Source: Apostichopus japonicus (Eukaryota; Echinodermata; Holothuroidea; Aspidochirotida; Stichopodidae). Taken from it: a stretch of DNA of 64,000 nucleotides. Shown here piece after piece: positions 24,352 to 51,522 of the stretch. The notes under the pieces are model-generated. The model did not search any database. It saw nothing but the letters and a program-made list of their open reading frames with translations, and had not been told where the DNA came from. The stretch is taken from the NCBI RefSeq assembly GCF_037975245.1, contig NC_092567.1, positions 663,501 to 727,500 of the forward strand. The letters run 5' to 3'. How positions within the stretch are numbered: the first letter of the stretch is position 1; each line of letters starts with the position of its first letter. A program made the position numbers and the translations under genes.

Positions 24352-24726
24352 CTAAATAAAATCCACTAAAACATAGATGTTTACGAACAAGTCATGTCTA
24401 CGAGAGTAGGAGCCTACGTAGTTCGCTGCTTCTGGCAGCCACACCATCAATGGTATTTTTAGTTTCAAGTTTGGCCAAATCCTCTTTTCCACAGTCATCA
24501 ACAAGAACGCCTTAAGATGTTCTTGTGTCATTGTACTTCTCAAACGGTTTTTGATTCTCTTCAAGGCAGAGAAAGAACGTTCACATGCCACTTGTGACAC
24601 AGGTAGCGTTACCAGCAGCTTGTAGGCAAGCCCAATGATTTTGTAAGCATCGGTGAAAAGGTTCAACTTGAGGAGCACCTTGTTACAGCAGAGATCGAGG
24701 ACAGTCTTTACATGACTGATTCCCAC
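24352..24726 (-). pseudogene. hAT transposase C-terminal fragment
   Basis: The 124-codon open frame contains the hAT dimerisation signature: LLVTLPVSQVACERSFSALK followed by RIKNRLRSTMTQEHLKAFLL. In this family the domain closes the transposase (ZMYM1/DUF4371-type proteins). Nothing of the catalytic core is visible upstream; the flank at 24,780-24,860 is GC-rich with repeated GCCCACCGG. It is therefore a truncated remnant. Confidence 0.85.
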
Positions 24727-24958
24727 AGTAAGAAATATATTTCTACACAGCCCGTCTGTATTCTATTAACTCCTTTGAAAATGGGTTGTAAATTTTACCA
24801 GGTTCCCCAGCCCACCGGCCCATCGGGCCACCAGCCCACCGGGCATTGCCCAAATGCCCGTGTGGCCAGTCCGCTACTGCTTTCCACAGTATTCACCATA
24901 GTACCTGCCAGAACGTCGACTCGTCCGTATCATAGCATCTGTCATAGCCTACCTTCAA

Positions 24959-25076: not shown

Positions 25077-25207
25077 TCAAGTGATGAGAGGTCGGATCTC
25101 CTCCTGAGTAAGTTCTTCTTCTCGTGAGATGTTCCTGAACGCGTTTCTTCCTCTTTTCAAACAGTCTTTACAGCACAAAAATCTACCCAACTTTATAAAG
25201 GTCGCAA
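25077..25207 (-). CDS. LRR receptor exon 19: cytoplasmic tail and stop
   Basis: The exon joins in phase to give VATFIKLGRFLCCKDCLKRG, then basic and acidic sequence ending EEELTQEEIRPLIT and TGA. A CCxxC group close to the membrane could be palmitoylated, and the EEEL-type acidic cluster could be a sorting signal; both are inference. Confidence 0.8.
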
Positions 25208-28200
25208 CTATAAGAAATAGAAATATTCTATATTACTGGTTTGTCTAGGTTGTAATAACAGAAAATATAGCAGTATCATTGAAGTAATTTTGTTACAAGT
25301 CATTCAGGGACAACATAATAATACGAACTATTCAAGAGAGACATACATCCTCGCTAATCCATGGAAGAATGTCCATCGCTGCTAGTCTATGGAAGAATGT
25401 CCACTCTTTGAATAGGGAGAAGCTGTTTATTCTTGGATTTTACTGTTCAACTTTCCAAAAGTACCATTTCAAACAACTATGGTATCTTGGTAAAATAAAT
25501 ATGGCTCTATATTCACATGCTTTGACTTACCTAGTGCAATGAAAATGACACTAGTGTTTAGAATCACCAGAAATGTGACAAGAATATCAGCTTGGATGTC
25601 TCCACTGAAAGATTCAGGAGCCGGAACTGCTGCTACAAGCATATTGAAGAAGATAGTCCAAAGAGCCGCCAACTGCAAAGTGGCATGAAAATAATACGTT
25701 TGTGGTGTGACAATGAGGTAATAAATTCTTCAATGCACATTAATCGAGCAAAGTCAAATATTTATGGCTTGGGTAAACTCGCGAAATGTTTTGGCAGACA
25801 ATGATTCAGCATAAAATATGCGCCAACGTTTAAAGACTATTTTAACTCCCTTATCTCCGCCTAGCAAGACAAAACCATGCTCTGACTGGACGGAAGAACA
25901 ACATTAATAATAAATAGTTGCATATGCATTCAAATATGATAAAATAGAATTAATCTCGTGTAATCAGTCCAATTCAAAAGTAAAGAACAAACTAAAAAAG
26001 TCCCTTCTCTACTCCAAAAGTTGTAAAAAGGCGTATTTGACTCTGCAATACCTTTTCTAAACTAGAGCGAACTCACCTGCAAGTAATACTCCATCCTATC
26101 TTTCATGGGCTTGAAGGAAATATGTAAACTCAAGAAGACGACGGCCAATGTCAACGTAATTGTGATAGAAAAATAACTATTCCATCCAAACAAAACGATT
26201 ACGAAGGTCTGTGAAACTTTACGAATAAGTTCAATGATTTCCCAGTACCAAAACTTAGGATGGTAATTTTCATTCAGAAACCTCAAGCACTTTGGCGAGT
26301 TGTCTTCGACAGATTCTTCAAGCTCTCTGACATCTTGTCGGGAATATTTCCACAGAAGAAAACATAACACTGCTGGAAGTGCAACGACATAAACAGATGA
26401 GCAGTAGGAGGCGATTTGGAAACGATGATGTATGGTAGTGTTACAGCTTATAGAGTAGTCAGATCGTAGGAGACTAATCTCGTGAACATCAAACTCATCA
26501 AGAGAATAGGTGTCGCAAGTAGGGCCGTACAATGCAAAGGTAACGTTGCATGTAGAAGTGTAAGTGACAAATAGTATCAGTACTAGCAAGGTGAGAATAT
26601 TACTTTGGTACCGTTGTAAACGTGAATTAATATCATCAACGTTTGCAGGTTTTCTCTTTTCTGACACTCTTGCATGAAGGTTAACCGCAGCAATAAGGAG
26701 AATGGCACAAAGCATTACAAAGTACGGGAACACGCTGCCGAGAGTAAACGCCGTGTACGGTGTTAATTCAAACGTAGGCCAGAAACATTTAGGCTTAATA
26801 ATTATACTTGAAATGTTAAACTGTAACAAATCAAGCCACGCAGTAATGTTTCTGAATATCTGAGGCCAAAATATTACGTCAATAGTTTCCCAAAACTCTC
26901 CCATAACTTGATAAAATCCGAGAACTATTTTTCCTAAGGCCAACATACTGTCAAACACTGATCGTGCCTGCTCGCTTTGTTCTCGATAATATTTAAATAG
27001 GAAGAAAAGGAAAAGTACCAAAGCAATAGTAATGATAGAAAGTTCCAACATGAATGATCTTAACTTCGGACAATGACGACAATATCCAAATATAGGAAAG
27101 AAGTTTTTATCACAAGTTGTGCACATCCAACCAGTGTAACCTTGAGCACAATTTCCCGCAATTTGGTCTACGTCATTATCGCATCTACCAGTCTTCAAAC
27201 ATTTGTGAGCTTTCGGAAGAGATCCATTAACTCTGGTTGCTGTCTCTTCGTAAGACTCATTAAATGTCAGTAAGTTTTCGACAAATCGTTTGTATCCTTC
27301 AATATCTGCGTAACTCCAGTTCCAGTAGTAGTCTTTTCTTATAGTCATGTAATCATCCTTGCACTGTACACCTTCTTGTGAACAAAACTCACATTTATCA
27401 AACCGATCACGTCTGAAATAGTTTTCTAGACAAAAACAAGCTCGAAATCCTGCCGACGCATCTTTGTTTGTTCCAGTGGGACAAACAAGGCAGCTCAACG
27501 GGCTTTGCCCTGCACCTTCCTTTACAAATGTGCCGGGATTGCAGATTTTGCATTTTATGGATGTACTGTTTGGTGAGAACTGGCCTACTTGATCTTGGTA
27601 GAAGCCACCTGATGAAAGAAATGCCAATAAAATGTTGACATGATATTTGCAGGTCCTAGAATTTAACATGTGTCAATTGTTTTAAAATACTATTTTTTGT
27701 TTTGTTATAATTAAATTTGATATTTTGAATCCAACTGTCTCATCACTTCCCAATCATTTGATAGGACTGTCATACTATCTCAGAATCAAAGTTAAATTTA
27801 CGGATACCAAAGTACTTGAATAAATCTAAACGTCGCTACCTTTTGGACAGGCATGACAACGGCTTTCCCATCCTAGAAGTTTTCCGTACGTCCCAGTTGG
27901 ACAGGATGTGCAAGTTAGGAATCTCTCAATCTGGGTGTCAGAACATTCGAAGCCTCGGTTCGCGAACCATAAGGAAGCCTCAGAGCGTACATTCAATACC
28001 ATTGGAGTCGACGGTGGCTGACAAGTTCTATAATAACATTAAAAAAACAGGTTAATTCATGTATGTATGTTGTGATATAACTACAGGCAGGCAATGGTAC
28101 TGTCTTGGTTGACGTGATATTCCAACAAGGTATAACAATACTCACATGTCTTTATTTCTGTTTTTTTATTTTAATACGTATCATTTATTTCAATATCGTT

Positions 28201-31200
28201 TCTTTTGGCTGGTCTACCTATAGGTCTCAATAACATCGGCTGCGACTTGGTGTACCTACATATAACACATGTTATAGTCATGATCGGATGGTTGTTAACA
28301 GTAAGCAATATATCATAGAAAAACAAGTATCTTATCTATAAGTTACATCCATCTTTGCTACACAATAGGTAAACGCGTTGGCAAAACACGCAACGTTATA
28401 GATTATCTGTATTATTAAAGTCAGACGTCCTTGGATATTTTTTGTCGTGATGTGAGTCGATTTATGACCAACTAGTTGTAATACATATGCAACAATTGAC
28501 AAGAGGAGTGAAGCCCCGCATCACTTCCTTGTAAGAGTTCAACGTTTAGGTGCAAACAAGGTTATCCTCCACGACCAAATGCTAATATACTTCAACCATA
28601 GTTGGTGTATACCTGTGTATGGGACGCTGTGTCTCGTTGAGAAATGCTACCCTGTGATCGACGATGAAAGGGTCAAACAACAACATTTTAAAAGTAGGTT
28701 ACTGTAACTATGTCTTGAATAACCAACTGTATACAGACGATATTGCAGGACCCTGCTGTGCCAAATTTTAGAAATGTTTTGCCCTCCTGTCCTCAATATA
28801 TTTTTAAGCTACACACTATGAAATTGACAACGTTGGCTGATGGAAGACTTTGAAAGGATAGAGAAAATGTCCATAGCCATTAATCCATTAAGCCATAGAA
28901 TGAATCAGAAAGTGGCTTAAAAACTGTATGGTATATTCAATGTTTTTCAATTAAGCATTTCAAGAAGATTGTGAAATACTTTGTCTTATTTGGCGCAGGC
29001 AAATCAGTACACATTCAGTACATTTCAGTGTATTATGTGAATCGAAATAAAAGACTTACGCTTTCAGATTCTTCTTGATTGTTGGTAATGTAAGTGTTTC
29101 ACAAGATAGACTTCTACAGTTTATGAAAGAAGTTGTGGAAAGGATTATTCGATTATCGCAATTATCTTTTGAATCATATGAAACTCATTAAGTAGTATAT
29201 CGTATGAAACAGTATACCATATGTTGCGTTAAATATGTATAAACGAAATAGCTGTTACCAATTCATTTAGCTCTAATGAGTATTTTGGCACGCTAGTGGG
29301 GTAATTTCCATTATAGCTTTATGCAAAATAATAATAACGAAGATTTAAAACTTCTATGTCGTTTGCTACCTTAATAAAAAATTATCTATAAAAATCACAA
29401 TTTTCTCACATTTGTTTATGTTCGATTAGTTAAATATCGATGTAAAACCTGTTTGGACTACTCAATATGTCTCTTACTAATTAAAACAGGTTACATATTA
29501 CACATCAAAATGTAATTCAAATCTACTCATTGTATAATATCATAGAAATTGAAAAGAAAACATAAGCAAAATCCAAATTTCATGTATTTCATAGGCTTGA
29601 TTGAAGGAAATTCATAATTTCATAGAAACTATACTTACATGACACCTTCATCAACGATTTCATCAAGAACTGCTGAAGATAATTGACGTATTGGATTATC
29701 TTGCAAAAGTCTGGAAAGAAAATCAGATGCTGCTATAATTTTACAACAAAATATGGAGTTTGGGTTCATACTTAGCGTTTGTGTGAGTTATTGTTCCATA
29801 AAGATGGTGCTGACAATTAACTTTATCAGTCTAACTTAACGCACCTTCATTAATACCTTTGTTGTTTGTATACAGCTTTATCTGACCAAGGGCATGAGGG
29901 AGAGGCGTTTCTAGGATGTGATTATACTAGCCAATTATTTCATATATTGTTTGTAATGACCAAAGTAAACATCTAACTCTACCTAATATCTTGCATCAAT
30001 TTTTAGCCAGTACATACTAAAGATGATTGCAGTCTACATTATTGATTCACAAGTCGCAAGTGACAGTGTACGACGCGTACTAGAAGTTGTTAATATTGAA
30101 TATGAGCACATAATCATTTTTGGGTGTAAGAACATACAAGTAATAACGATTGATAAAGTATCAGATATAGGCTGCAGAAAGTCTCTTCTCTGAGTGAAAT
30201 AGTTATCAGCATGCGCCAGAATTGCGACTTATCATATTACATAATTTAATTTTAAGGAAAAATACATCGACGAGTACATGCAGAGGTGTGATAATAAGTT
30301 AAATCTTGAACTGCACTTTTCTTTTGAAAAAGTAACGATTTTCTGAAATCATGAAATAAAATATGCTGTATTAATAATGCAACAATATGCCTTTAATCAT
30401 ACTTGGTGACAAGAAAAGTCCTTATACTTACACTTCTTTTAATGTTAAGTTTTCTTGAGTATTACCAAACAATGGTTCAGTCAGTCTTTCTACTTTGTTC
30501 TGAAATAGATATCTGAAAATGTGGACATGTCAGTGCATCAAATACGGTACGTTTATGTATCAATGTTATCGAATCAAAATGGACAAGTTAGAATAACCAT
30601 AACATCACAACAACAAAATTTACTGTTTACAATTAGCTTACTTCAAACATTACTTTGCTAATATCAGCTGGATTATTCTCAGTTTGTGTGTTGGTTTCTT
30701 TGTGTCCTTGATGGTTCGTTTTTGTCTGTTGTTATATGTTTAAGAAATTATTGGTAACCAACCCTAGATTCATAACGTGATTGGGAGTGCTACAGAAGCC
30801 AAAACACATTAATTAAAGTCTGGATCAAAGCAAAAACATACATATACTAAACAAATTTGGCAAAATTTGCATTCAATTTGCATTCAATTTGCAAAAAAAG
30901 GTGTGATGCCATAGTGGCAACCTTTCCAATTTATGGGAAATTAAGTGCAAACAAAGTATTTGTTTGTCAGTATACTTCAAGTTCACTTTTGGGACAATCT
31001 TTGAAAATTCAATTACCAAAACCTCGCAATAGCCATGAAGGAATTGCAAGCAAATGTCATCAGGATGCTTAGAAAGAATTCTTCTCTCAGCAGTCACAAA
31101 TAAATGTTCCTCTGTATTATCCTGTTAAATACCAATTAATCATTCTGTATATTTGTGTATTATTAAGTTAAATATTTTGTAAATATGTTGCATCTTTGTT

Positions 31201-34200
31201 GATATGACTTTTATTTGCTTTATTTCATTAATAAACATCTATAGGAACAAGCTATGGAACACTTCGTCACTGATTCGTTAAGTTACCTTCAGTCTTCTGC
31301 TACAGTTACATGATGTTATTAGGGTTATTGATACTTTTACACTTTTGTATAGAGCATAACAGTTACTTACAGACGTATCAATGTTGTGCCTGCAAGTAGA
31401 GATCCTGGCAGCGTTTTCAAGTTATTACCATTGAGATATCTGTTCAATTATTGTGTTCAGGAAAAATATATTATACAGGTTATATGAAAAAGACCTGAGC
31501 TTAAGCAAAGCTTGATTCACTTTAAGCTACTTGTCGATTTGAAGCGTAAGCTTTTCGTCCACCATCTACTTGAGGACATACAATACACAATCAGTTCAAT
31601 TCAACTCACCGGAGTATACACCACACATACTAAGCTCACCGGCATTTTTTTTAACGAATTTATACAAACCAATAAACTGCCTATAGTACTCCGCCCATCG
31701 TTTCTCACGTAATTGTTCTTTCATGTTTAGTTCGGATGATAAAACTATTTCATATCGCCCAAAATAGAGCTATCAGCTGGTTATCAGAATAAAGCATGTT
31801 TGTGCTGTGATTAATATTGTCATGAGCATGCATACTGTGTGTGACCTTCCTCATTATGAATTCTAATGTACCAAGTTATAGTTATTCTTCTTTTATTCTC
31901 ACCGAATATTAAAGACTCACTTTCTCGTGGCACATGTACGACAGATACATGTTCCGTCCAAGAGGTATTCTTTTCGACTGGGACTTTCATTTCAACAAAA
32001 ACAAGCACCCATTAATTCCATATTAAATTTCATATAAGAATAACGAGAAACGAATCATCGTTGTTAATATTTGAAAGGTATCATATTATCACATTCACAT
32101 GATATTCATAAGTCTTCAAAATGTGATGTCTGCAATTTAGTTTGCTACAACGAAGATTTTACCCATACACAGTGTCCACATTTTACCACTTAAAGTGAAA
32201 ATTGAGCTCTTAACTATGTACATATACAATCTTTAGACTCACAGATTTTGAAGATAGTGAAGATTGTCGAACAGGCCCTTCGGTAAAGTGTTTAGTTTAT
32301 TTCCGCATAAAAGCAGTGACGTCATTAAATGACCATTGGGATTTGTTGAGAAAAGTCCTTTAGGAATTTCTTCCAAATCGTTGTTGCCAAGGTCTCTGAA
32401 ATTACAAAGATGTAATTTTGCTTTCATATGAGAGTTACCATGTCCATTGTTGTTGTAGACATTTGGTACAAGCTTCCATCGCATCACGAATACTTCATTA
32501 ATGATAACATGATTCAGAAATAACCGTACAACACTCAAACGTCATCGTGTGTGGCTGTTATATGTTTAATTGTGTAGCGACCTCTATTTTATGAGTTGTA
32601 TGTAAATTAGTTATCCAGCTTACACTGGCTTAAACTGGTTCTAACTGGCTCTTGTCTACTGTACTAGCTATAGTAATCGTGTGTGGCATTTACCTATTTT
32701 GGGTTTTGGGTACGGATCGCGTACTGGTCTAAACTGGACGTCTGGCCGTAACTGTGGCATTAACCTATTTGCGAAAGGAATATATTTACGCCTTCAGGAG
32801 TAAGAACTAAGTATACGTCGTTTTGTAACTGTTAGGTATGTTCCTCGTTGGCCAAATACATATATGTGTTTGGTGTCTTAAATAAGCCGGGATATTATGA
32901 ATTTTACTTTGATTCTTGGACCATGTTCGACCAGTTCCCGCTATCGTACTTTGGTTAAAGTGTATTTTCCATTGTATTATTTTGTCTATTTGTGGTGCAG
33001 ATTCATTGAACTACTGAGCACTAAACATGCATTAATGGAATCAACTTTACAAGAGACGAAATTTTGGTCTGCATTATAAGGAAGGTACATCTTAATTTGC
33101 AAATATATTAGGATGTTGAAAATAAGTTTCTCTGTCATTTTGCCTACATCCCTGTATTTGTTAGTCACACTGGTTTCCTAGCATTAACTTCAGTTTGGAA
33201 TCAATGTTGTGACGTATTTGTAGCCTACTACGAAAACCACAAAATAGTACATAATATAAGGAAGAAATATAAAATGGTCTTCCAAGTTAATATACTTATA
33301 AAACTTACAAAAAAGAATTGATGCTAGTGTTTTCAAATAATCCTTCAGGTATCGTCTTCATCTTGATGAACGACATAAATCTATAAAGTAGATTAGACGA
33401 CAGATATATGACTTTTCTGAAATGAAGAACTTATTGATGATAATAAGAAACGTCGGAGGTCTCAATAAGACTCAGATTATATTTAATTAATGGATGATCG
33501 TGATTATAACCAACCTTTTATTTTTGTCGATAGTGCTGTGGAAGTAGTTTGAGTGACTGGTGATGACTATTTCAGCTGGTGTGATATTGCTAGATAGCAA
33601 AATATTTATCGTCTAAAAACAGCAGACTAACTGATAACAAATTATATGGAAATTATAGAAAAACTTTTAATTATGGAATTGACCATTCATTTCTTAATGA
33701 TGAAACGAAACACAAAGACATAACTTACAACATACGAAACATACGTTGATTGCCGAAAAACATTTCCGGAATTTCAGTAAGACCATTCCAGGATATGTCC
33801 CTGTTGATTATTAAATAAACAAAGTGCATCTTAGACAGTCCTAAGTGTAAATATTCAGAAAGGTTCTGCAATCGAAGTTACTTAGATGTGAAAACTTCCA
33901 AACTTTCAAGCAAACTTGTGCAATATGTACTTTTTTGTGTCTTATTTATTGGTTTCCTTAGTATTTACCACTGAAAGTGCCATTTTTCGTCTATAGGGCC
34001 CCATTGGTAATGGCCGACGTTCTGTCAACCTAATGGGTTTAGCTCCTGTTACTCTTTTTGTTCTTTTCATTTCCGTCCTATTTGTCTATTATGTCTTTGT
34101 AATATTTTTGTATTTTGAACAATATGAGTGCGAATAATACAAACAAACAAACAAAAGCAGAACTGTACATTGGCGTATGCGTACAAAGATCGTCGTGTTA

Positions 34201-37200
34201 CTTAATTTAGGCTAGGCCTATTATGACCGGAAACGACCTACAACACTGCAAATGTGAGGTTATTATGGTCTCTTGATGAAATATGAGTGCGAATAATACA
34301 AACAAACAAACAAAAGCAGAACTGTACATTGGCGTATGCGTACAAAGATCGTCGTGTTATTTCATTTAGGCTAGGCCTATTATGACCGCAAACGATCTAC
34401 AATACTGCAAATGTGAGGTTATTATGGTCTCTTGATGAAATATGAGTGCGAATAATACAAACAAACAAACAAAAGCAGAACTGTACATTGGCGTATGCGT
34501 ACAAAGATCGTCGTGTTATTTCATTTAGGCTAGGCCTATTATGACCGGAAACGATCTACAATACTGCAAATGTGAGGTTATTATGGTCTCTTGATGAAAT
34601 ATGAGTGCGAATAATACAAACAAACAAACAAAAGCAGAACTGTACATTGGCGTATGCGTACAAAGATCGTCGTGTTATTTCATTTAGGCTAGGCCTATTA
34701 TGACCGCAAACGATCTACAATACTGCAAATGTGAGGTTATTATGGTCTCTTGATGAAATATGAGTGCGAATAATACAAACAAACAAACAAAAGCAAACCT
34801 GTACATTGGCGTATGCGTACAAAGATCGTCGTGTTATTTCATTTAGGCTAGGCCTATTATGACCGCAAACGATCTACAATACTGCAAATGTGAGGTTATT
34901 ATGGTCTCTTGATGAAATATGAGTGCGAATAATACAAACAAACAAACAAAAGCAGAACTGTACATTGGCGTATGCGTACAAAGATCGTCGTGTTATTTCA
35001 TTTAGGCTAGGCCTATTATGACCGCAAACGATCTACAATACTGCAAATGTGAGGTTATTATGGTCTCTTGATGAAATATGAGTGCGAATAATACAAACAA
35101 ACAAAAGCAGAACTGTACATTGGCGTATGCGTACAAAGATCGTCGTGTTACTTAATTTAGGCTAGGCCTATTATGACCGGAAACGATCTACAATACTGCA
35201 AATGTGAGGTTATGATGGTCTCTTGATGAAATATGAGTGCGAATAATACAAACAAACAAACAAAAGCAGAACTGTACATTGGCGTATGCGTACAAAGATC
35301 GTCGTGTTATTTCATTTAGGCTAGGCCTATTATGACCGGAAACGACCTACAATACTGCAAATGTGAGGTTATTATGGTCTCTTGATGAAATATGAGTGCG
35401 AATAATACAAACAAACAAACAAAAGCAGAACTGTACATTGGCGTATGCGTACAAAGATCGTCGTGTTATTTCATTTAGGCTAGGCCTATTATGACCGGAA
35501 ACGATCTACAATACTGCAAATGTGAGGTTATTATGGTCTCTTGATGAAATATGAGTGCGAATAATACAAACAAACAAACAAAAGCAGAACTGTACATTGG
35601 CGTATGCGTACAAAGATCGTCGTGTTATTTCATTCAGGCTAGGCCTATTATGACCGGAAACGATCTACAGTACTGCAAATGTGAGGTTATTGTGGTCTCT
35701 TGATGAAATATGTTGTAAATATTATATATATATTTCAACATTGTGGTAAACCAAATATTCATAACTGAATAAATGAAGTGGAATTACCTACAACATCTCA
35801 TACAAGAGGCGTACCGTAAATCGGAGTAGTTTCTGAAGTTACTAACATATACGCAGTACCATATTAAGGACAGAGAGATATAGATATTGATATATAAAGT
35901 CAGATATTTAATAGAGCCGAAAACATGAATTAGACGTTTATAGATGCAAACATGCTCATCCTCGCAACATAGGAAGTAGACTATAAATGCTAACTCTTGT
36001 GTATAAGTAAATTTACAATCGGTTCTGTGGTAGCCCGTGAAAGTAGTAACTTAAGGCGATACACCGTTGTATTTAATCAGTGAATGTTTCCCTAAATATA
36101 ACAATAAATGAATAATATATCAAATCAGGGTCATTCAGTTTAATAATTGACGTAGGTAACAAAATCAGCATTATTTTTACAAGAAATTTTAAATATCGCA
36201 ATGCATTTTGGCAAGTGGTTTGTGAGTCATAATGCAAAGGATATGTATTGCCGTGTTTACTTACAACCTTTCAAGTTTCGTGCAATTCCGTAGAAGAGTT
36301 GGAGGTAAAGCCAGTATGTTGTTCGACCCCAATTTCCTAAATGAGAAAATATATATAATATGGCCTGTTTTAATCTTTTGAGAGTTGATTTGCGTTGTGT
36401 TTTCACAGATAATACCCGTGATGTTTCTCAACTAATTTCTACAAACTGTTGTCTTCCAATTAAATATGAGTAAAGTACATATAATTTATAGTTACTTAAT
36501 AGGGTTAGAGAAGGGGAGAAGGTCGATACATGATATACACAGTAGAAAGTATATTAGAAAATGACAGCATGGTTAATTAGTTTACCATTCGCAAGGTCCA
36601 GAATCTCGAGAAACCTGATATAGACCGGTCGGATATTTGATATTTAATTGGATGACTGTCACAACGTTTTCTATGTACGATGAGGCTTCCTACTTTAAAA
36701 TAATGACATGCCTTGGTATTTACGTAACTTAAATCGTAGGACTCTGTTAATTAAGTAAGGGTGATTGTTGTTATTTGTTTAAATGTGAAATCACCTCATT
36801 CTGCTTGCCCAGGTCCGCCACTTCTTATACATTTACTCATACCCTCTATAGGCCAAGAAGAGTGATTAACGTTAATTAAACGAACATTTCAACATAACAA
36901 AGATAACCCGAAGATTGTGTCAGTCAATTTTGTGGTTGTTAACTTATTCCATGATTTTGCTTTATTCTTATAGGCTATACTTACAAATTTCGAAGGTTGT
37001 TACACGCTCCTGATAGTGAGTCTTCAGACAAATACATCAAGTAGTTGTTTTGTAATCTCCTAAGAATAATAAAGAAAACAAAACTGGTAGTTGAAGTTAC
37101 TTTAGCATTCACGAAAAGTCCAACTTTTTGTTTTCTATTTCTTAATATTATTATTTTTTCTTCAAAAATATGTAGCATTCTTTGTATAGTTAGAACTATA

Positions 37201-37560
37201 TAATGACTTCAGAATAGTAATCACAAATGTATACGTACAATTCTCGCAGGGAACTTAGCCCGGCAAAGCTGTGCTTCCAGATTCTGTGCACGTTATTCGT
37301 AGCTAAACCACTATGAAAAGAGAAACATGAGAGCACTGTGTGTATTGTTAGATTGTCAGAATAGCATTAACACTCATACCACGCGCGTATTACGCCCTCA
37401 TTGACAATTATAGAAAGTCTATGATACGCCCTCTATTTGGGTCTGTGACCCGAAGGTCAGGATACCTGCGCTTGATGATTCCCCAAATGACGAAATCGGT
37501 CTTAAAGTTTTCTGGTGTGTTGATCTTTAATAAAAGTTTGATATATATATTATATATATG

Positions 37561-37606
<46 letters not shown>

Positions 37607-40600
37607 CATGCGACACATATAATTTTAAAAACACGGCTTGGTTTAGCGGGCCTAGATAAGTGGTAATTCTGTTGCAACACGTGCGTAATACACTCTCATT
37701 GATAGTAATAGAAAGGATATATACGAATCTACTTCAGTGTAATCATTGTGATTGAGTGGTATATGGACGTAGGTTTTTGACACAAAGGTCCGGGATTCGA
37801 TTCATAACTTCGCCTGTTCATGTTGCATTGCAAGGACTCGCAGAAGCAAAAAATTATCTCACTTTGTTCCGATTTCTTAATTGTTCAATTTACTCATCCA
37901 ATTTTACTTTCAAGTTTAACTTTATATCGCAGAAGAAACTACGCACGGAGCTGGAAGTTGAATCATTTTGCTTCGTTCAGTTTTTACAGATAAAATTTTA
38001 CTGTACATTACGATCTGGTTTATGCTAACAAGTAAAAGTCATGGAAAGAAAACTCACAGTTTTTCAAGTCTAGAACATATCTGGAAGATATATTCTGGTA
38101 TGTCAAATATTTCATTGATGCTCAAGCTCCTAAGGAGACAAGAAGATGTAAGGTAGACGGGAATAGATTACATAAATACATAAATCTTACATAAGTCTTA
38201 CATAAATAATATATGACAAGTCATTTAGCCTCTGAAGAAGATCCTGCTAGGATCGAAACGTCAGGCCAACTGACTTTTACTATAGTGGGGACGCGTGTCT
38301 GTTCTCTGATACTATCTAAGCGGAGCGCGACCATGGGTTCGCGCGTAGCGCACAATAATTGTTTTTGGCAAATATACCTCCCAGATCGCCGGAAATAACA
38401 CTTCCCAGACCCAATGATGCTCCCAAACCTCCTTAAATTTTAGATCTCATGGCTTAGAAATTTGGTTCGGGGAAGTACATGGGCGTCTGCAGAAAAAAAT
38501 CAGGGAACAAATAATCCAAGTAGACTTTTGTATACGATGGGTCTGGGGTCCTCTCCCAGAAAACAATTATAGACTGCCGCATTTCATTTGCAAAATGCTT
38601 AATCCAACTGCGCCAAAGTGAAATACAGGGGAATTTGAAATGCAGCCTTTCGTCAAAACACGGTAAATCATGTCCCCACCACTGAAAAGGTTGATGGGGA
38701 CGCGTCCCGTTGTCCCCACCAGGATCTGCGCTCATGCACAGGGTCTTAAGTGGATAAGCAAATTGCTTTATTTTGATAAATAATATATATCAACAAACAA
38801 GGGTTTAAATCCATTGAATATCACCAAGTATTACACGTGTTATGTGCATTATGATTGATAAAATGGACTTACGCGACTTGGAGATTGTCGCAGTGGATGA
38901 AAAAATTGTCTAGATCTTCGAGTTGATTGTTCTTAACATCCCTGCAATGAAAAAAAAATCATGAATGTTATCACATATACGCTTAGCGAAAGGTGTATAA
39001 CATGTGATATCACCATGATTGCTTATGTTGTCATATTGACACATTAAGTTCATCGTTTACACAAGTGCAGATCCAATCATCCAACTTATATCAAATATTT
39101 TAAATTAAGTCGACATAAAATACGTGACAGACATTTAGGTTGTTTTATCTAAAGAAGACTACGATAAAGTAATGATGAACTGATATTTTTATATAAAATA
39201 AGATGCAGCCTATCCATTCGTTCCCTGCAAATTAACACTATAAGCAACAGCTGGGAAGTTTGATATGCTTCTTACAACTTCTCCAAACTCGGCGGAAGAA
39301 GGAATGACTTTTGTAAGTTGTTAGCACCGAAAACCCTGTAAGGAAAGTGAAAAAAAAAACAGTTGCCATTATCTTTTAGTCTTGCGTGAAGGGCGCTTGT
39401 GTTGTGTGTGTGTGAAACCATGTCAACTTAAATTCATGGACTGGTATAGGTATATAGATCTACTCAAAGCCGAAGCCATGTTGGAGCACGGCGGAGTCGT
39501 CACCTTCCGTTGTACATACCACTGTGCCCACTTATAACACCAAAATGTATACAAACAATCTCAAACTTGTTAAATCCCCTTTTAAGGCAGTTGATATGCC
39601 CTTCTCTAAACTGATAGTCCCCAAAATCTCAGAATTCCTGAAAAGGTGGCTACCTCATTCAAACTTAGAAAGAGCTATCTTTATACTATTCGTATTTCCA
39701 CTCTTCAAAAATAAATAAATGTAGTATTACAAAATCTTGATCTTTCTAGTAAATGCAATTGTAGTATATAGTATATTATATATGGACTTATACAACCTCG
39801 CATTCGCAAGATAATGCATTCATTACTTACAAGAATTTCAGCTTCGTAAACTGTTCGAAATATTTCGTTGGGACGCAATTAATTTTATTGTCAGAAAGGA
39901 CCCTGTTGAAAAAAAAAAAATTGTATAAACTTATTAGTAAATTGTGTATTCCAACATGAGGGAATTCGACAAATGAAAAAAATACGGGTCACTTGATTGA
40001 TAAGCAAAGATTTATGTGGCCTTATATTTTTCTGGTGGTGTGGCTATATATACTAACACAAATGAATAACATGCATATATTGCTCAACCTACGTTTACCA
40101 ATACATGCAATCATCGATTGGAAGAGATTTATATAATTTAAATCATAGTGATTTAGAAAATCCAGAATAATGGAAGTGCCCAATGTAAAACAGAGCATTA
40201 AATATCATTAGAATAGAATGAAAGTAACGACTCATTGCTTGAAAGGGACATGAAAAACTTGTTTCATGATTTCTCACTCGTCAGGTATGCGACCATGTTA
40301 AAGTATGTCATTTGAATTTTGTGTTTCTGAGTTTGGTATGTAGCAATTTTTATTTTGAATGCCTGCAATTCAACATCAACTCAGAGAGTTGGTTAAGCGT
40401 TGATTCAAAGGGTGTCTATAGATAAGAAAATATTATTTCCTGTAGGCATAGCTTGCAACGTGTTGTGGTGTTGCTGTATGGCTTGGAGTGTTTGAATATA
40501 TTCCCATTAATACCCAAACTTGATTTGTCTATCCTTGAGTGACCAGACAAGTTTGCTTAGTTCAGTTTCGTTCCTATTGTGCTGGTGTGTGAATTAGCTT

Positions 40601-43600
40601 TTACTCTACAATTGCATTGTTTGGTTGGTGGTCTGTTATGGTTGTTGATAATAGATTTGTTGTGAGCATCGATTCTGTTTTTCATGTTTGGCATGCAGCT
40701 GTAACTAAGTATCACTGTGTTCTAATCTATGACAACTAGGAAAAATATTTTCACACGTATATGGAATTATGTACAAATTGATTTTGTAGCTATCGAACTC
40801 TTAAGACCGGATCAAGTCCATTAAGGTTTAGTTGACTAACTGCATAGCCACGTACGGCTAGAGACGTTTACGTCGTGTTATCTATAGAAACAATTTGCAA
40901 TTCCTTGGAGAGTGCCAACAATGTACATTCTTACCCAGCGTTCAAATCATTTGCTCATATCGAGTCAAATGCACTCCAAAAAACGCAACTACTCAAACAA
41001 GACCGCATACCTCCGTATTCCAAATCAACTATCGGTGAAGACATTTGCATGATACTGAATAGTTTGTTTGTTTCCGTATACCTCCGTATAACAAATCAAC
41101 TATCCGGTGAAGACATTTGCCTGGCATTGAATAGTGGTTTTGTTTCCGCATACCTCCGTATAACAAATCAACTATCGGTGAAGACATTTGCATGATACTG
41201 AATAGTTGGGTTTGTTTCCGTATACCTCCGTATAACAAATCAACTACCCGGGGAAGACATTTGCCAGGCATTGAATAGTGGTTTTGTTTCCGCATACCTC
41301 CGTATAACAAGTCAACTATCGGTGAAGACATTTGCATGATACTGAATAGTTGGGTTTGTTTCCGTATACCTCCGTATAACAAATCAACTATCCGGTGAAC
41401 ACATTTGCCTGGCATTGAATAGTGGTTTTGATTCCGCATACCTCCGTATAACAAGTCAACTATCGGTGAAGACATTTGCATGATACTGAATAGTTGGGTT
41501 TGTTTCCGTATACCTCCGTATAACAAATCAACTATCCGGTGAACACATTTGCCTGGCATTGAATAGTGGTTTTGATTCCGCATACCTCCGTATAACAAAT
41601 CAACTATCGGTGAAGACATTTTTTTAGTATAGTTTTTGGTTTTTCTATTTGTTTTCTTTCTTTGGTTGGACTCTCTTAAAGGAATCTTGCTTGCGTAGTT
41701 GAAACATTTAATGTGCAATCCATAAGATTGCTACATAATATATATCTTGCCCCCGTCTATGACAGTATTCACAAACACTTACATGGCCGTCACGTTTGAT
41801 GGCATATTTCGTGGCAAGGCGAGCAAATTTTGATTCTCACAATCAACCTTTGCTCCTCCATATGAACAAGTGCAGATTCCTGTTGGTCCACACACCGGAA
41901 CGTCTGTCGGAATATCAATGTACAAAACGTTTAAATTATAAATGACAGTAAATCGCTTTCTAATTCTGGTTAATCAAGGAGTAGGTGTTTCTCTTTGTTT
42001 TCATCTGACGAACTTATTGCCTTCAATATTCTCTGATTCCATCACCTACCCATTTTTTTCTGCATTATACTTCAGGGAAGTCTTTTCTGCAGCTGGAAGA
42101 CTCGGTTTAGTGTAATGCAATTCGTGCTTGTTGTTCTATGATGCGGCTGATACAAATATACCCTTTATAATTCGTAATGGTCCTTTGGTAAAAGTAACGG
42201 TATTAAATAAGACTAATGCCTTGATAGACTAAACTCAGAAAAGAAAACTTAAATAGCAGTAACGTTCTTTTTTGTTGCTATTTCTCATGTTAGTGCTATT
42301 ATAATGCACTTCAAACAGTTCGTATTCAGTTTTGACATGTACAGAAGTATTACGACAAGGGTTTCTATTAAACCATTCCGCCGTTCAATGACATGAGTGC
42401 CGCATAATTGGGAAGAAAAAAAAGTCTAATGGAAATTGACTTTGTAATTTGCGATGCATTGTCGTGTCACGGATGTCTTATTTTTGTATTCCAATGAACA
42501 ATAAAAATCGGCCACCACTTCAGTAATCCACCAATTTAAAAACAACAATCAGATATATAGCATATGATTACACTCTAAGAACTACTTCTTCGCGGTAAAC
42601 GCTGAGAATTTTACCAAAATTTGTTAAATTATGTTATGAATGTGTAGAAGTGATGACCATTTGTGATCTGAAATGCCGAATGTATTTTGTTCTGTTACTT
42701 GTAAGTACATCCTATACACTACTTGTTCATGTCTATGGTACATAAATCATATGTTTAGCACTGATTCCAATTTACCTAATGAGCAGTTTGAAATAAGGCC
42801 TACGTTTTCCATATGGCCTGGGCCTATTACCAGCTCTTCATGGCCCTGTGTATCTACCTCTTAAACTATCCCTCCAAATATATCAAAAGGGCTTATTCCA
42901 TGCATGGCTGGTAGCCACACTGGCAACTCTCTTGCAATTACAAAACCAAATGTATAGCCTACTGTTTCATATACAGGATTTTGTATGGGAATGACCCAAC
43001 TGTTTCTTCGCAAAACATCATGATGATCATACTAAAACAAAACAAAAAATATACCAAACAAGGGTTGGTTGCTGGTTTAGATGCAAGACAAAAGAGCTTA
43101 ATCAATATCTTAAGTAAAAATTGTTACAGGGATTAGTTTAGTTGGAAATAGTGGCTTCTGTGAAACATTATGACTGTTTTACATCAGTGTCCGCTCTCTA
43201 TTAAGAACTGAATATCTTTCTTAACCCTCGTAGCAGAATTTCTCTGAACATATGGATTTTTCAAACAATAAACTTAAAGTAAGAGGCATTTCTTCTAACT
43301 TTCAAGCGATATTTTGAGTTGCATTTGCTAAATGTTGAATACTGTTTTATTCTAAACTCTCATACCAATATCATTCATTAAATTGGCTAGGTAATTCTCA
43401 TTTATAAGGCGTATTAATTTCTAAATTTGTTTGAGATTTCAATATAGTTGTTGACTGACTTTACTATGCTATTATGAAAGGTGTCTGGGCTACGAAAGTG
43501 TTTGTATTTTTCCCCCTGAAAGTTGAATCATACATACCTGGAACGCTTAATTTATTTTTAACCAGAGTAGACTGAAGTGACTAAGTTGCTTTATTGAACA

Positions 43601-44637
43601 TTGTCTATATTTCTCACCATTGAGCTTACCATACTGGAAGAAATTGACGAGGGATGTATTTAGAAGATTTAACTGCCGAGACAAATTGCAACCAGGCTCT
43701 CTCAGTTACCATTACTGTTTCTTGTCACAAAAACACATGAATTAGCAGTTAGAAAAACTGTAAAAAGTGATAGACAGGACTTGAAATGGGACTTGAATTA
43801 ATTAAAAAGGGTCAAGGCAGCAAGGTATCTCAGCTTTTTAAGTTACAACAGTCGAGTTTTACGGTGTACAACTTTTCTTTTCCTGTGTTTCCCTGACACA
43901 AATTTTCACCTGCCCTTAATTCCGTTCTAAAAATCTCCATTCCCATCATATTAATTAGTCACTTTAAATTTAAAAAAAAAAACATTTTGAGAGAAAAGGC
44001 GGAGCGGCGAATAACCCTATCCTTTGCATAGTAGCTAGTAACGCAGTTCGCGTTTATAACTAATTCTTGTCTCCAATGCCATGCAATTTTATAATAACAC
44101 TATCCTTTGCATAGTAGCTAGTAACGCAGTTTACCATGCAATTTTATAATAACGCTATCCTTTGCATAGTAGCTAGTAACGCAGTTCACGTGTATAACTA
44201 ATTCTTGTCTCCAATGTCATGCAATTTTATATTGATACGAACCCTTACCGTTGTTATCAGGTCGTACCTGAAAATGTACGGTCAGACTGACTTTTGCCGT
44301 AGAAATCAACTTTGAGAATCTTCGAGAAAAAGGAAAGCGACGAGTAACACTCACCTTTGCATAGTAGTAATAAGTTCAGTTTAAGTGTACTACTATTCCT
44401 TTTTTTTTTCTATTGAGGCCTATTCCTGACAAACATTTCCAGTTGTCTTTAATTCCATTCTCCCAATGTCTTTCCCCCTTCCTTTTGATTAGTCCCTGTT
44501 GCACATAAAAGGAACCATATCCTTTATAAATAGGTCTTACCTGACAATGGACAGTCATCTTGAGTAGCGATAACTTGAGTCATTCGCTGCAGGCAGCCAA
44601 ACATGAGGAAGAAATACAGATACAGCATCATGTACAT
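25077..44637 (-). CDS. LRR / cysteine-rich / multi-pass membrane receptor-like protein, 19 exons
   Basis: Exons in transcription order (high to low): 44637-44541, 41903-41783, 39902-39831, 39335-39276, 38941-38873, 38129-38058, 37310-37239, 37059-36985, 36336-36265, 33800-33729, 33380-33309, 32395-32243, 31439-31371, 30512-30432, 29710-29639, 28027-27840, 27608-26077, 25672-25531, 25207-25077. All borders are GT-AG, all phases agree, and the product is 1,073 residues. Order: signal peptide (1-30), LRR N-terminal cap (about 33-73), 14 LRRs (73-410), GCC2/GCC3-like cysteine-rich region (411-655), about eight membrane segments (655-1030), cytoplasmic tail. The membrane part lacks the E/DRY and NPxxY marks of rhodopsin-like LGRs. 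It resembles uncharacterised GCC2/GCC3 membrane proteins of marine invertebrates and protists with a WWE..RK motif. A role as a surface pattern or ligand receptor is inference. No symbol is warranted. Confidence 0.88.
25531..25672 (-). CDS. LRR receptor exon 18: last two membrane segments
   Basis: It encodes LAALWTIFFNMLVAAVPAP, then ADILVTFLVILNTSVIFIAL, two hydrophobic helices separated by a short polar loop (ESFSGDIQ). The acceptor CAG at 25,673 joins in phase 0 to YYLQ of exon 17, and the donor is CTAG/GTAAGTC. Confidence 0.85.
26077..27608 (-). CDS. LRR receptor exon 17: cysteine-rich ectodomain and most membrane segments
   Basis: The 1,532-base exon encodes further GCC2/GCC3 modules (CKICNPGTF, CLVCPTGTNKD, CEFCSQEGVQC), then DYYWNWSY and C-rich GNCAQGYTGWMCTTCDKNFF. 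Membrane segments follow: LELSIITIALVLFLFFLF, FPYFVMLCAILLIAAVNL, ILTLLVLILFVTYTSTC, YVVALPAVLCFLL, and SITITLTLAVVFLSLHISF. Between the last two lies FWYWEIIELIRKVSQ, a motif kept in protist and invertebrate GCC2/GCC3 membrane proteins. The open frame extends 61 bases into the upstream intron, so the ATG at 27,669 is not a real start. Confidence 0.92.
27840..28027 (-). CDS. LRR receptor exon 16: linker into the cysteine-rich region
   Basis: The exon follows the last repeat and encodes TCQPPSTPMVLNVRSEA, then CTSCPTGTYGKLLGWES and CHACPKG. The C-x2-C-x-x-GTY-x(n)-C-x2-C pattern is that of GCC2/GCC3 (ephrin-receptor-like) modules. Phase 1 at its end joins exactly to GGFYQ in exon 17. Confidence 0.85.
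29639..39902 (-). CDS. LRR receptor exons 3-15: leucine-rich repeats, mostly one per exon
   Basis: Thirteen exons encode 14 repeats. Nearly all are 69-81 bases, and phase 2 is kept across the joins. Examples: VLSDNKINCVPTKYFEQF (exon 3), SLSINEIFDIPEYIFQIC (exon 6), LATNNVHRIWKHSFAGL (exon 7), KLGSNNILALPPTLLRNC (exon 9), DISWNGLTEIPEMFFGN (exon 10). Exon 4 is only 60 bases and gives a shortened repeat. Exon 12 (153 bases) holds two repeats, DLGNNDLEEIPKGLF and LLLCGNKLNTLPKGLF. Single-LRR exons of this size are also typical of LGR and related receptors. Confidence 0.87.
34124..35710. repeat. 159-bp satellite, ten near-identical copies, in LRR receptor intron 9
   Basis: ATGAGTGCGAATAATAC recurs at 34,124, 34,283, 34,442, 34,601, 34,760, 34,919, 35,078, 35,233, 35,392 and 35,551. 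The period is 159, except one unit of 155 that lacks one AAAC. Copies differ at only a few sites (GACCGG/GACCGC, CGACC/CGATC). Each unit contains AACAAACAAACAAA and TTTAGGCTAGGCCTATTATG. Confidence 0.96.
37537..37605. repeat. AT dinucleotide microsatellite
   Basis: An interrupted (AT)n run lies in intron 6 of the LRR receptor gene; the central uninterrupted part is about 40 bases. Confidence 0.9.
37742..37806 (+). mobile_element. tRNA-derived SINE head (degenerate)
   Basis: The stretch has a tRNA-like internal promoter: TTGAGTGGTATATGGACGT in the position of an A box, and GGTCCGGGATTCGATTCA as a B box (GGTTCGANNC type), 30 bases apart. Acceptor-stem pairing is poor, so it reads as a SINE head and not a functional tRNA. 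Confidence 0.5.
38222..38270 (+). other. Retroelement-type motif with hammerhead-like core
   Basis: CTGAAGA at 38,232-38,238 matches the hammerhead CUGANGA box. An extra A follows, then the helix GATCC-TGCTA-GGATC (38,240-38,254), GAAA (38,255-38,258) and CGTC. GCCT (38,228-38,231) can pair with AGGC (38,263-38,266). Penelope-like retroelements are known to carry hammerhead motifs. The strand with the cleavage site was not found, so activity is doubtful. Confidence 0.35.
38280..38745. mobile_element. GC-rich dispersed element remnant
   Basis: GGGGACGCGTG near 38,288 and GGGGACGCGTCCCG near 38,697 border a GC-richer block with TCCCCACCACTGAAAAGG, which contrasts with the AT-rich intron. It looks like a non-autonomous DNA element, but clean terminal repeats could not be defined. 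Confidence 0.3.
41030..41620. repeat. 144-bp satellite made of two related half-units, in LRR receptor intron 2
   Basis: GCATGATACTGAATAG recurs at 41,047, 41,190, 41,334 and 41,478. Each 144-base unit has two diverged halves of about 72 bases, both with CATACCTCCGTATAACAA / GTATACCTCCGTATAACA-type cores and GTGAAGACATTTGC. 144 is 48 codons, which explains a 229-codon minus-strand open frame of repeated IVDLLYGG words. I do not regard it as a gene. Confidence 0.92.
41783..41903 (-). CDS. LRR receptor exon 2: LRR N-terminal cysteine cap
   Basis: The exon encodes VPVCGPTGICTCSYGGAKVD, then CENQNLLALPRNMPSNVT. The C-x6-C-x-C-x8-C spacing (the last step being TCSYGGAKVDC) and the following L-x-x-L-P are the LRRNT pattern that caps extracellular LRR solenoids. 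The DDC from exon 1 lies directly before it. Confidence 0.85.
44011..44240. repeat. Three tandem copies of about 50-85 bp in LRR receptor intron 1
   Basis: CTATCCTTTGCATAGTAGCT-type blocks with GTAACGCAGTT occur at about 44,029, 44,100 and 44,155, each followed by CATGCAATTTTATA. The middle copy is shorter, having lost the TAACTAATTCTTGTCTCC part. A fainter copy (CCTTTGCATAGTAG) lies at 44,352. Confidence 0.85.
44541..44637 (-). CDS. LRR receptor exon 1: signal peptide
   Basis: Starting at the ATG at 44,637 the exon reads MYMMLYLYFFLMFGCLQ, a hydrophobic signal core, then a short polar stretch to DDCPLS. Two further ATGs at 44,631 and 44,628 would give nearly the same signal, so the exact start is uncertain. 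The exon ends CAG/GTAAGA at 44,541 in phase 1. Confidence 0.8.
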
Positions 44638-45703: not shown

Positions 45704-46735
45704 ACAGCATAGATCAGTGGTAGGCTCTACATATTGCCATTTAATTCGTATTTATCAGCATAGATCAGTGGAAGGCTCTACGTATTGCCATTGAACTCGT
45801 ATTTATCAGCATAGATCAGTGGTAGGCTCTACGTATTGCCATTGAATTCGTATTTATCAGCATAGATCAGTGGTAGGCTCTACGTATTGCCATTGAACTC
45901 GTATTTATCAGCATAGATCAGTGGTAGGCTCTACGTATTGCCTTTGAATTCGTATTTATCAGCATAGATCAGTGGTAGGCTCTACGTATTGCCATTGAAT
46001 TCGTATCTATCAGCATATATCAGTGGTAGGCTCTATACGTATTACCACTGAATCCGTATTTATCAGCAGAGATCAGTGGTAGGCTCTACTTATTGCCATT
46101 GAATTCGTATCTATCAGCATAGATCAGTGGTAGGCTCTACGTATTGCCATTGAATTCGTATTTATCAGCATAGATCAGTGGTAGGCTCTATACGTATTGC
46201 CATCGAATTCGTATTTATCAGCATAGACCAGTGTTAGGCTCTACGTATTGCCATTGAATTCGTATTTATCAGCATGGATCAGTGGTAGGCTCTACGTATT
46301 GCCATTGAATTCGTATCTATCAGCATATATCAGTGGTAGGCTCTATACGTATTACCACTGAATCCGTATTTATCAGCAGAGATCAGTGGTAGGCTCTACT
46401 TATTGCCATTGAATTCGTATTTATCAGCATAGATCAGTGGTAGGCTCTACGTATTGCCATTGAATTCGTATTTATCAGCATAGATCAGTGGTAGGCTCTA
46501 CGTATTGCCATTGAATTCGTATCTATCAGCATAGATCAGTGGTAGGCTCTACGTATTGCCATTGAATTCGTATTTATCAGCATAGATCAGTGTTAGGCCC
46601 TACGTATTGCCATTGAATTTGAATCTATCAGCATAGATCAGTGGTAGGCTCTACGTATTGCCATTGAATTCGTATTTATCAGCATAGATCAGTGGTAGGC
46701 TCTACGTATTGCCATTGAATTTGTATGTAAATCTG
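45704..46735. repeat. 51-bp satellite, about 20 copies
   Basis: The unit runs from AGCATAGATCAGTGGTAGGC through TCTACGTATTGCCATTGAAT to TCGTATTTATC, with a 51-base step (45,706, 45,757 and so on). A variant pair with TCTATACGTATTACCACTGA next to AGCAGAGATC occurs near 46,030 and again near 46,330, about 300 bases apart, so a block of about six units was duplicated. Confidence 0.95.
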
Positions 46736-51405: not shown

Positions 51406-51522
51406 GAATCGAATCGAATCGATGAGAATCGAATCGATGAGAATCGAATTGATGAGAATCGAATTGATGAGAATCGAATTGATGAGAATTGATGAGAATG
51501 GATGAGAATTGATGAGAATTGA
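51406..51522. repeat. GAATCGATGA tandem repeat inside the LINE reading frame
   Basis: Units of 10 and 15 bases (GAATCGATGA, GAATTGATGA) sit exactly between the LINE segments DDVRRKFSRL and AAGPDHLSS, where related elements have only a few residues. It is a local slippage expansion after insertion. Confidence 0.85.

What the first reader, a model, noticed from the sequence alone, without database searches (positions are those of the whole stretch)
25077..44637. Undescribed receptor layout: LRRNT + 14 LRRs + GCC2/GCC3 cysteine region + about 8 membrane helices
Seen: a 19-exon minus-strand gene joins in phase from signal peptide to TGA (1,073 codons). It combines an LGR-like LRR ectodomain and exon pattern with a GCC2/GCC3 cysteine-rich stalk and a multi-pass membrane region that has no rhodopsin-family E/DRY or NPxxY marks. 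Known: LGRs pair single-LRR exons with a rhodopsin-type 7TM. Inference: this is a separate class of LRR surface receptor, perhaps lineage-expanded and immune- or ligand-sensing, built from an old GCC2/GCC3 membrane protein.
Basis: partly seen in the sequence, partly recalled or inferred. Interest (0 to 1): 0.78.

Follow-up and report, generated by a model that had tools for sequence, protein, structure and literature searches.

The report
Expanded echinoderm LRR multi-pass receptor family
The window holds one gene for a probable cell-surface protein with a leucine-rich-repeat head, a cysteine-rich neck and a multi-pass membrane part that faintly resembles fungal TRP-like channels, and this probable echinoderm genome carries about 100 copies of that membrane module.

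Summary
It encodes a signal peptide, an LRRNT-like cap, 14 LRRs, a GCC2/GCC3-like and DUF7630-like cysteine region, 8-10 hydrophobic helices and a short tail. Nearly every exon has a collinear relative in paralogous loci, and the parts tested are under purifying selection (dN/dS about 0.16-0.27). The genome is most likely an echinoderm's (mitochondrial code 9). It holds about 100 loci with the same membrane exon, mostly in clusters. LRR exons lie upstream, in sense, in 13 of 13 closest copies and 10 of 10 distant representatives, though three of those rest on a single exon. The membrane part is not a rhodopsin GPCR or polycystin by Pfam; its only sequence lead is a sub-threshold match to the fungal TRP/Flc family (PF06011), seen in 4 of 22 members. 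My best guess is an LRR receptor that signals through a TRP/Flc-like, possibly Ca2+-permeable, membrane domain. Ligand, expression, channel activity and occurrence in other species were not tested. None of my searches of the paper library turned up this architecture.

The parts
44541..44637 (-). exon 1: start (M1 at 44637; the start of the C2 relative aligns with M4, 44628) and signal peptide
   Evidence: relative in L052 (C2) 52% over 29 aa
41783..41903 (-). exon 2: LRRNT-like cysteine cap
   Evidence: C5 and C2 relatives 49% and 54%; Pfam LRRNT below cut-off
39831..39902 (-). exon 3: LRR 1
39276..39335 (-). exon 4: LRR 2 (short, degenerate, 60 nt)
38873..38941 (-). exon 5: LRR 3
38058..38129 (-). 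exon 6: LRR 4
37239..37310 (-). exon 7: LRR 5
36985..37059 (-). exon 8: LRR 6 (phase and LRR profile support; no paralogue match of its own)
36265..36336 (-). exon 9: LRR 7
   Evidence: weak paralogue matches
33729..33800 (-). exon 10: LRR 8
   Evidence: C5 copy 53% over 15 aa
33309..33380 (-). exon 11: LRR 9
32243..32395 (-). exon 12: double exon, LRR 10 + LRR 11; family hallmark
   Evidence: 13 of 13 C5 and C2:3.6 Mb copies; several distant copies
31371..31439 (-). 13th exon (label 14): LRR 12
30432..30512 (-). 14th exon (label 15): LRR 13
29639..29710 (-). 15th exon (label 16): LRR 14
29060..29113 (-).
27840..28027 (-). 17th exon (label 18): first GCC2/GCC3-like unit
   Evidence: matches at E<=1 in 6 of 10 distant loci, two of them at 0.007
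26077..27608 (-). 18th exon (label 19): second GCC2/GCC3-like unit, DUF7630-like cysteine stretch and most membrane helices
25531..25672 (-). 19th exon (label 20): further membrane helices
   Evidence: 79-81% in 8 of 8 C5 copies given
25077..25207 (-). 20th exon (label 21): end of last helix, short tail ending E-I-R-P-L-I-T-stop

Best explanation
It is one member of a large family, in this probable echinoderm, of LRR surface receptors. A 14-repeat LRR solenoid, capped by an LRRNT-like exon, sits outside the cell on a cysteine-rich GCC2/GCC3 + DUF7630-like stalk. The stalk enters a membrane domain of about nine helices, perhaps distantly related to the fungal TRP/Flc (Pkd2) type, with a tail of about 35 residues in which no signalling domain was found. 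Proposed working: a ligand binds the LRRs, the stalk transmits the change, and the membrane domain itself passes the signal, most likely as a Ca2+-permeable channel or channel-like gate. The C-terminal [DE]xxxLI motif may serve endocytic sorting. Shown: gene structure, family, conservation. Inferred: topology and surface location. Guess: ligand sensing (about 0.75) and channel mechanism (about 0.45).
For: Gene structure and collinear conservation of nearly every exon. LRR exons upstream of the membrane exon in sense only: 49 hits of 5 bits or more in ten distant loci, 0 antisense, 0-3 per run in 20 simulated sets. Double-LRR exon upstream of 13 of 13 closest copies. About 100 loci. Purifying selection on the LRR exons tested, Cys and membrane parts. 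Highly conserved membrane motifs across divergent members. Loops 1-2 and 4-5 are basic (3.0 and 2.3 K/R per 10 residues) against 0.9 in the loops taken as outer. PF06011 matches the joined protein over profile 150-405 of 426 at E 3e-4; best member 2.6e-6. In a scan of the whole genome with PF06011 the 12 best rows (E<0.03) are C5 and C2 copies of this family, and 14 of all 15 rows at E<=10 lie in family loci, one of them (C2:18.73 Mb) assigned through DUF7630 only. S. pombe Pkd2 and Trp1322, of the fungal TRP-like group, are described as Ca2+-permeable (PMC8618638, passages).
Against: PF06011 is below its curated cut-off in every row of the genome scan and for the window protein, and 18 of 22 members do not match it even at E<=1; the matching rows are mostly close relatives and so not independent, and one search scored only 17 first-look candidates. 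No solved structure matches the membrane part by sequence. Both AlphaFold models, made without an alignment, are poor (mean pLDDT 40 and 48), and the fold search gave nothing below E 2.6. No pore motif was shown. Loop 6-7 gives no clear charge signal and holds 1.6 Cys on average. Three of the ten distant representatives show only one LRR exon. No expression data.
Confidence: 0.5

Rival explanations
1. A G-protein-coupled or other non-channel seven/nine-helix receptor: LRR ligand binding changes a helical bundle that couples to G proteins, as in LGRs, but with an unrelated helix bundle.
For: LRR ectodomain with single-LRR phase-2 exons as in LGRs (LGR exon pattern recalled). Multi-pass membrane part with a short tail. 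Weak match of the membrane-exon ORF to Serpentine_r_xa, a nematode serpentine receptor family, 0.0051, below cut-off. GCC2_GCC3 is listed among N-terminal domains of Glutamate-family GPCRs (PMC3251606, passage).
Against: No 7tm family at E<=0.1 on the full protein, Serpentine_r_xa included; no E/DRY or NPxxY in the membrane part; more than seven hydrophobic stretches if the last two exons are counted (and by eye).
Confidence: 0.2
2. A scavenging or adhesion surface protein or transporter-like molecule without a signalling role of its own: LRRs bind a ligand or matrix, the membrane part is anchor or carrier, and the dileucine-type C-terminus recycles it.
For: Conserved [DE]xxxLI near the very C-terminus of the window protein and 8 of 8 C5 copies looked at, in an otherwise diverged tail (motif recalled). 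Flc proteins were proposed to transport FAD (PMC8618638, passages).
Against: Strong conservation within the membrane core suggests more than an anchor. No transporter family over its cut-off was seen; one of 22 members has a weak EmrE match, 0.0035.
Confidence: 0.2
3. An artefact of joining two neighbouring genes, an LRR protein and a separate GCC2/GCC3 membrane protein, with the family size inflated by haplotigs or pseudogenes.
For: No transcript evidence. Some C5 and C2 copies are near identical, in line with a ~124-kb segmental duplication or uncollapsed haplotypes (coordinates and scores). 10 of the 81 main rows carry stops in the matched stretch.
Against: Phases continue across the joint. 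The order LRR exons - GCC exon - membrane exon recurs in copies on other chromosomes. In the joined model the membrane half has no start or signal peptide of its own and the LRR half no stop. 71 of 81 rows have no stop.
Confidence: 0.05

Closest known systems
Leucine-rich-repeat GPCRs (LGR/RXFP/GRL101 type)
   Same: LRR ectodomain, single-LRR phase-2 exons (recalled for LGRs), multi-pass membrane part; one starfish LGR (GRL101) is differentially expressed in olfactory organs (PMC6267866, passages)
   Different: membrane part is not rhodopsin-type; GCC2/GCC3 + DUF7630-like stalk
Aplysia ApLRRTK (PMC4200351, passages)
   Same: signal peptide, eight or nine LRRs, then a GCC2_GCC3 region before the membrane
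   Different: one membrane helix and a tyrosine kinase; here many helices and no kinase
Fungal TRP-like / flavin carrier / Pkd2 family (PF06011)
   Same: weak match over about 60% of the profile
   Different: below cut-off; most fungal TrpR homologues carry a TRP_N/ML domain (PMC8618638, passages), not LRRs
Polycystin-1/2 (PKD_channel PF08016)
   Same: polycystin-1 also joins LRRs to a TRP-superfamily membrane part (recalled)
   Different: the PF08016 scan of this genome rings at 12 rows on C3, C6, C19 and C22, none a locus of this family; no PKD, REJ or PLAT domain matched
Toll-like receptors
   Same: LRR surface receptors, large family in echinoderms (recalled)
   Different: no TIR domain found, many helices

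Membership tests
LGR / rhodopsin-type LRR GPCR | LRR ectodomain | tested here: met
   LRR_8 4.8e-28, 14 LRRs
LGR / rhodopsin-type LRR GPCR | 7tm_1 membrane domain with E/DRY and NPxxY | tested here: not met
   no 7tm family at E<=0.1; motifs absent from membrane part
Fungal-type TRP/Flc (PF06011) | match over the Pfam gathering score | tested here: not met
   20.2-21.6 bits for the window protein; best genome locus 28.3 against cut-off 28.5
Fungal-type TRP/Flc (PF06011) | same membrane fold | tested here: inconclusive
   models too poor, fold search uninformative
Fungal-type TRP/Flc (PF06011) | Ca2+-permeable channel activity | not testable with these tools
   needs expression and recording
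Polycystin | PKD_channel domain PF08016 | tested here: not met
LRR + GCC2_GCC3 receptor kinase (ApLRRTK type) | single helix and tyrosine kinase | tested here: not met
   no kinase family in the full protein at E<=0.1; several hydrophobic stretches
GCC2/GCC3 (Ephrin_rec_like, PF07699) proteins | PF07699 match over cut-off | tested here: inconclusive
   window 16.3 bits, below 23.1; equivalent exons of paralogues at C2:3570155 and C2:3628993 over it
DUF7630 proteins | PF24633 match over cut-off | tested here: inconclusive
   window 16.8 bits, below 27; 21 of 22 members match at E<=1, best 2.6e-9; 34 of 85 genome rows over cut-off, while 2 of 14 control genomes ring below cut-off
Toll-like receptor | TIR domain | tested here: not met

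The most novel reading that the evidence does not exclude
A class of animal receptor-channels: LRR heads gating a TRP/Flc-like pore, expanded to about 100 genes in an echinoderm and serving as a Toll-sized chemosensory or immune receptor repertoire whose signal is an ion current.
Probability: 0.3. Interest if true: 0.85.

Novelty: new variant of a known kind. Interest (0 to 1): 0.64.

Why it matters
Echinoderms are known for large LRR repertoires (Toll-like receptors, NLRs; recalled). A further family of about 100 LRR genes whose membrane part is neither TIR-linked nor rhodopsin-type would add an unstudied surface-receptor system. If the TRP/Flc link is right, it would be an animal case of an LRR ectodomain placed directly on a channel-type membrane domain outside the polycystins. 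It also gives a membrane domain with many invariant residues, ready for structure prediction with a deep alignment.

Tried and rejected
Two-gene artefact: rejected on phase and on collinear paralogues. Rhodopsin GPCR, polycystin, Toll receptor and receptor kinase: not met by Pfam. Relatives in viral and prokaryote contigs: 34 and 93 pattern matches, none confirmed by tblastn; these collections are of viral and of bacterial and archaeal contigs, so this says nothing about other animals. Solved-structure search by sequence: nothing below E 0.1; the rows were Notch, Eph, TNFR and other cysteine-module proteins and chance-level ones. AlphaFold on the membrane exon alone: pLDDT 40 and 48; the Foldseek result is treated as no evidence. 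NCBIfam, membrane-exon ORF only: nothing. Rfam on the window at gathering scores: nothing. Bacterial promoter scan: not applicable to an animal gene.

Positive selection on the LRRs: not shown. Among four C5 copies the LRR dN/dS is 0.18-1.15 against 0.05-0.42 in the membrane part, on 1-12 changes of either kind per pair and region; C5 against C2 pairs give 0.40-0.72 (LRR) and 0.28-0.36 (membrane); one C2 pair gives 1.69 for LRR on 7 changes. This hints at looser constraint on the head, no more.

Papers: PMC13228809 (passages): the terms leucine, LRR and ephrin do not occur. PMC6993872, PMC3251606, PMC4224354, PMC6267866 and PMC6150509: passages only, none of which describes this layout. Other papers named in listings were not opened, PMC8618638 (passages) and PMC4200351 (passages) apart.

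Limits of counts: the locus union was copied by hand from the 81 main rows and all 77 rows, but only 6 rows and 5 that looked new; rows within 2.5 kb were merged and clusters are runs with gaps under 200 kb. One search was compared with it by eye only. Searches scored only the best first-look candidates, so counts are lower bounds. In one search the LRR set is exons 11, 12, 15 and 16 (122 codons); C2 copy L048 was dropped and one C2 copy (L050) had no membrane exon in hand. In one search the simulated sets held fewer candidate exons (132-183) than the real ones (290 sense, 211 antisense). COX1 was compared under codes 5 and 9 only.
Full report
What is there. On the minus strand, 44637 to 25077, twenty exons join in phase into 1,091 codons plus stop (its labels run 1-12 and 14-21 and are used below). 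Exons 3 to 17 all enter and leave in phase 2; exons 3-11 and 14-16 hold one LRR each (60-81 nt) and exon 12 (153 nt) holds two, 14 in all. The product has a signal peptide, an LRRNT-like cap, the LRRs, two GCC2/GCC3-like units, a DUF7630-like cysteine stretch, a multi-pass membrane region and a short tail. Pfam on the joined product gives LRR_8 4.8e-28; LRRNT, Ephrin_rec_like and fungal-type TRP (PF06011, 3e-4) are below their cut-offs.

It is one real gene. In paralogous clusters on contigs C5 and C2 the same exons recur in the same order. Exon 1 is found in L052 (52% over 29 residues). Exons 2-7 are found in both L051 and L052, exon 9 weakly; exon 10 in L044; exons 11, 12 and 14-18 in L044 and L049. 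Exon 18 is found in 7 of 8 C5 copies given and in both C2 copies, exons 20 and 21 in 8 of 8 C5 copies given. Exon 8 had no match of its own. The stop codon follows the conserved PLI plus one residue in 8 of 8 of these C5 copies. dN/dS of the window gene against the copies is 0.20-0.27 for the LRR exons tested, 0.17-0.24 for the cysteine part and 0.16-0.19 for the membrane part.

The organism. COX1 of contig C35 was read under codes 5 and 9; code 9 (AAA=N, ATA=I, with AGA=S and TGA=W in both) gives the residues expected at conserved places (expectation recalled). Code 9 is that of echinoderms and flatworms; from the protein I take the genome as an echinoderm's. The class is not established.

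The family. The membrane exon has 81 main rows. A distant member as query and one row bring the union to 100 loci; three DUF7630-only loci make 103, in 26 groups on 12 contigs, 10 of the groups being single loci, and 52 of the loci on C16 (copied by hand, partial). Two fragments on C16 near 16.85 Mb may be one gene, so I say about 100. 71 of the 81 rows have no stop. Copies at C5 16.458, 16.504 and 16.544 Mb recur about 124 kb further on, a recent segmental duplication or uncollapsed haplotypes. In a tree of 29 membrane exons the window gene groups with the six C5 and two C2:3.6 Mb copies included, at 100/100.

The LRR ectodomain belongs to the family. The double-LRR exon lies 4.4-7.1 kb upstream of the membrane exon in 13 of 13 C5 and C2:3.6 Mb copies. 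For ten distant representatives I scanned 8.5 kb upstream with an LRR profile built from the window exons, demanding AG/GT and phase 2. This gave 49 hits of 5 bits or more in sense, 0 in antisense and 0-3 per run in 20 Markov simulations. All ten have at least one hit, but L016, L017 and L018 have only one each, so for those three the LRR head is weakly shown. A relative of the first GCC exon was found in 6 of the 10.

The membrane part. Among 22 members down to 32% identity to the window protein many columns are invariant or nearly so, in stretches such as KIxLGFYQ, FLxENYxxxFWxWEixELxRKVxQT and PMK. Hydropathy gives seven peaks in the main exon; the next two exons add about two more (read by eye). 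Loops 1-2 and 4-5 are basic; loop 6-7 is unclear, so 8 to 10 helices remain possible. PF06011 is the membrane family with the most extended match. In a whole-genome PF06011 scan the 12 best rows are C5 and C2 copies and 14 of 15 rows at E<=10 lie in family loci, but none passes the cut-off and 18 of 22 members show no match at E<=1. I therefore call it TRP/Flc-like as a lead, not a membership. The PF08016 (polycystin channel) rows of this genome lie elsewhere. Structure prediction without an alignment failed.

How it may work. With no kinase, TIR or long tail found, the signal must pass through the membrane bundle itself or through partners. I favour ligand binding by the LRRs, transmission by the cysteine-rich stalk, and gating of a TRP/Flc-like bundle (0.45), over G-protein coupling (0.2) or a scavenger/carrier role (0.2). 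The C-terminal [DE]xxxLI, conserved in a diverged tail, suggests endocytic sorting (motif recalled).

What is known. The paper searches turned up no description of LRR + GCC2/GCC3 + multi-pass proteins in the listings and passages seen. DUF7630 is in no paper held, and PF06011 together with leucine-rich repeat in none. The nearest is the Aplysia receptor kinase ApLRRTK with LRRs and GCC2_GCC3 (PMC4200351, passages); GCC2_GCC3 is also listed among N-terminal domains of Glutamate-family GPCRs (PMC3251606, passage). Eukaryote protein databases could not be searched, so the family may well be present, unnamed, in other echinoderm annotations.

Noticed in passing
window 24352-24759 (-): hAT transposase C-terminal dimerisation domain (PF05699, 9.8e-9) just beyond the 3' end of the receptor gene.
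   Followed up: no
window 50608-51532 (-): Two reverse-transcriptase pieces (RVT_1; the second below its cut-off) in overlapping ORFs of different frames, a broken retroelement upstream of the gene.
   Followed up: no
window 34121-35712 and 41003-41621: Satellite-like tandem arrays inside introns of the gene: 159 bp x 10 and 72/144-bp units.
   Followed up: no
window 45705-46726: 51-bp unit x 20 tandem array about 1 kb upstream of exon 1.
   Followed up: no
window 31910-32000 (-): Stretch between the double-LRR exon and the next LRR exon that reads SKRIPLGRNMYLSYM without good splice borders; may be a decayed LRR exon (by eye).
   Followed up: no
G000 C5 16.40-16.70 Mb: Nine same-strand copies with a repeat offset of about 124 kb over three copies: segmental duplication or uncollapsed haplotypes.
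   Followed up: partly
G000 C29: Five pieces of COX1 on a second contig, in line with a nuclear mitochondrial insert or a second mitochondrial contig.
   Followed up: no
window 25077-25207 and C5 copies: C-terminal [DE]xxxLI one residue before the stop, conserved in a diverged tail; looks like an acidic dileucine sorting motif (motif recalled).
   Followed up: partly
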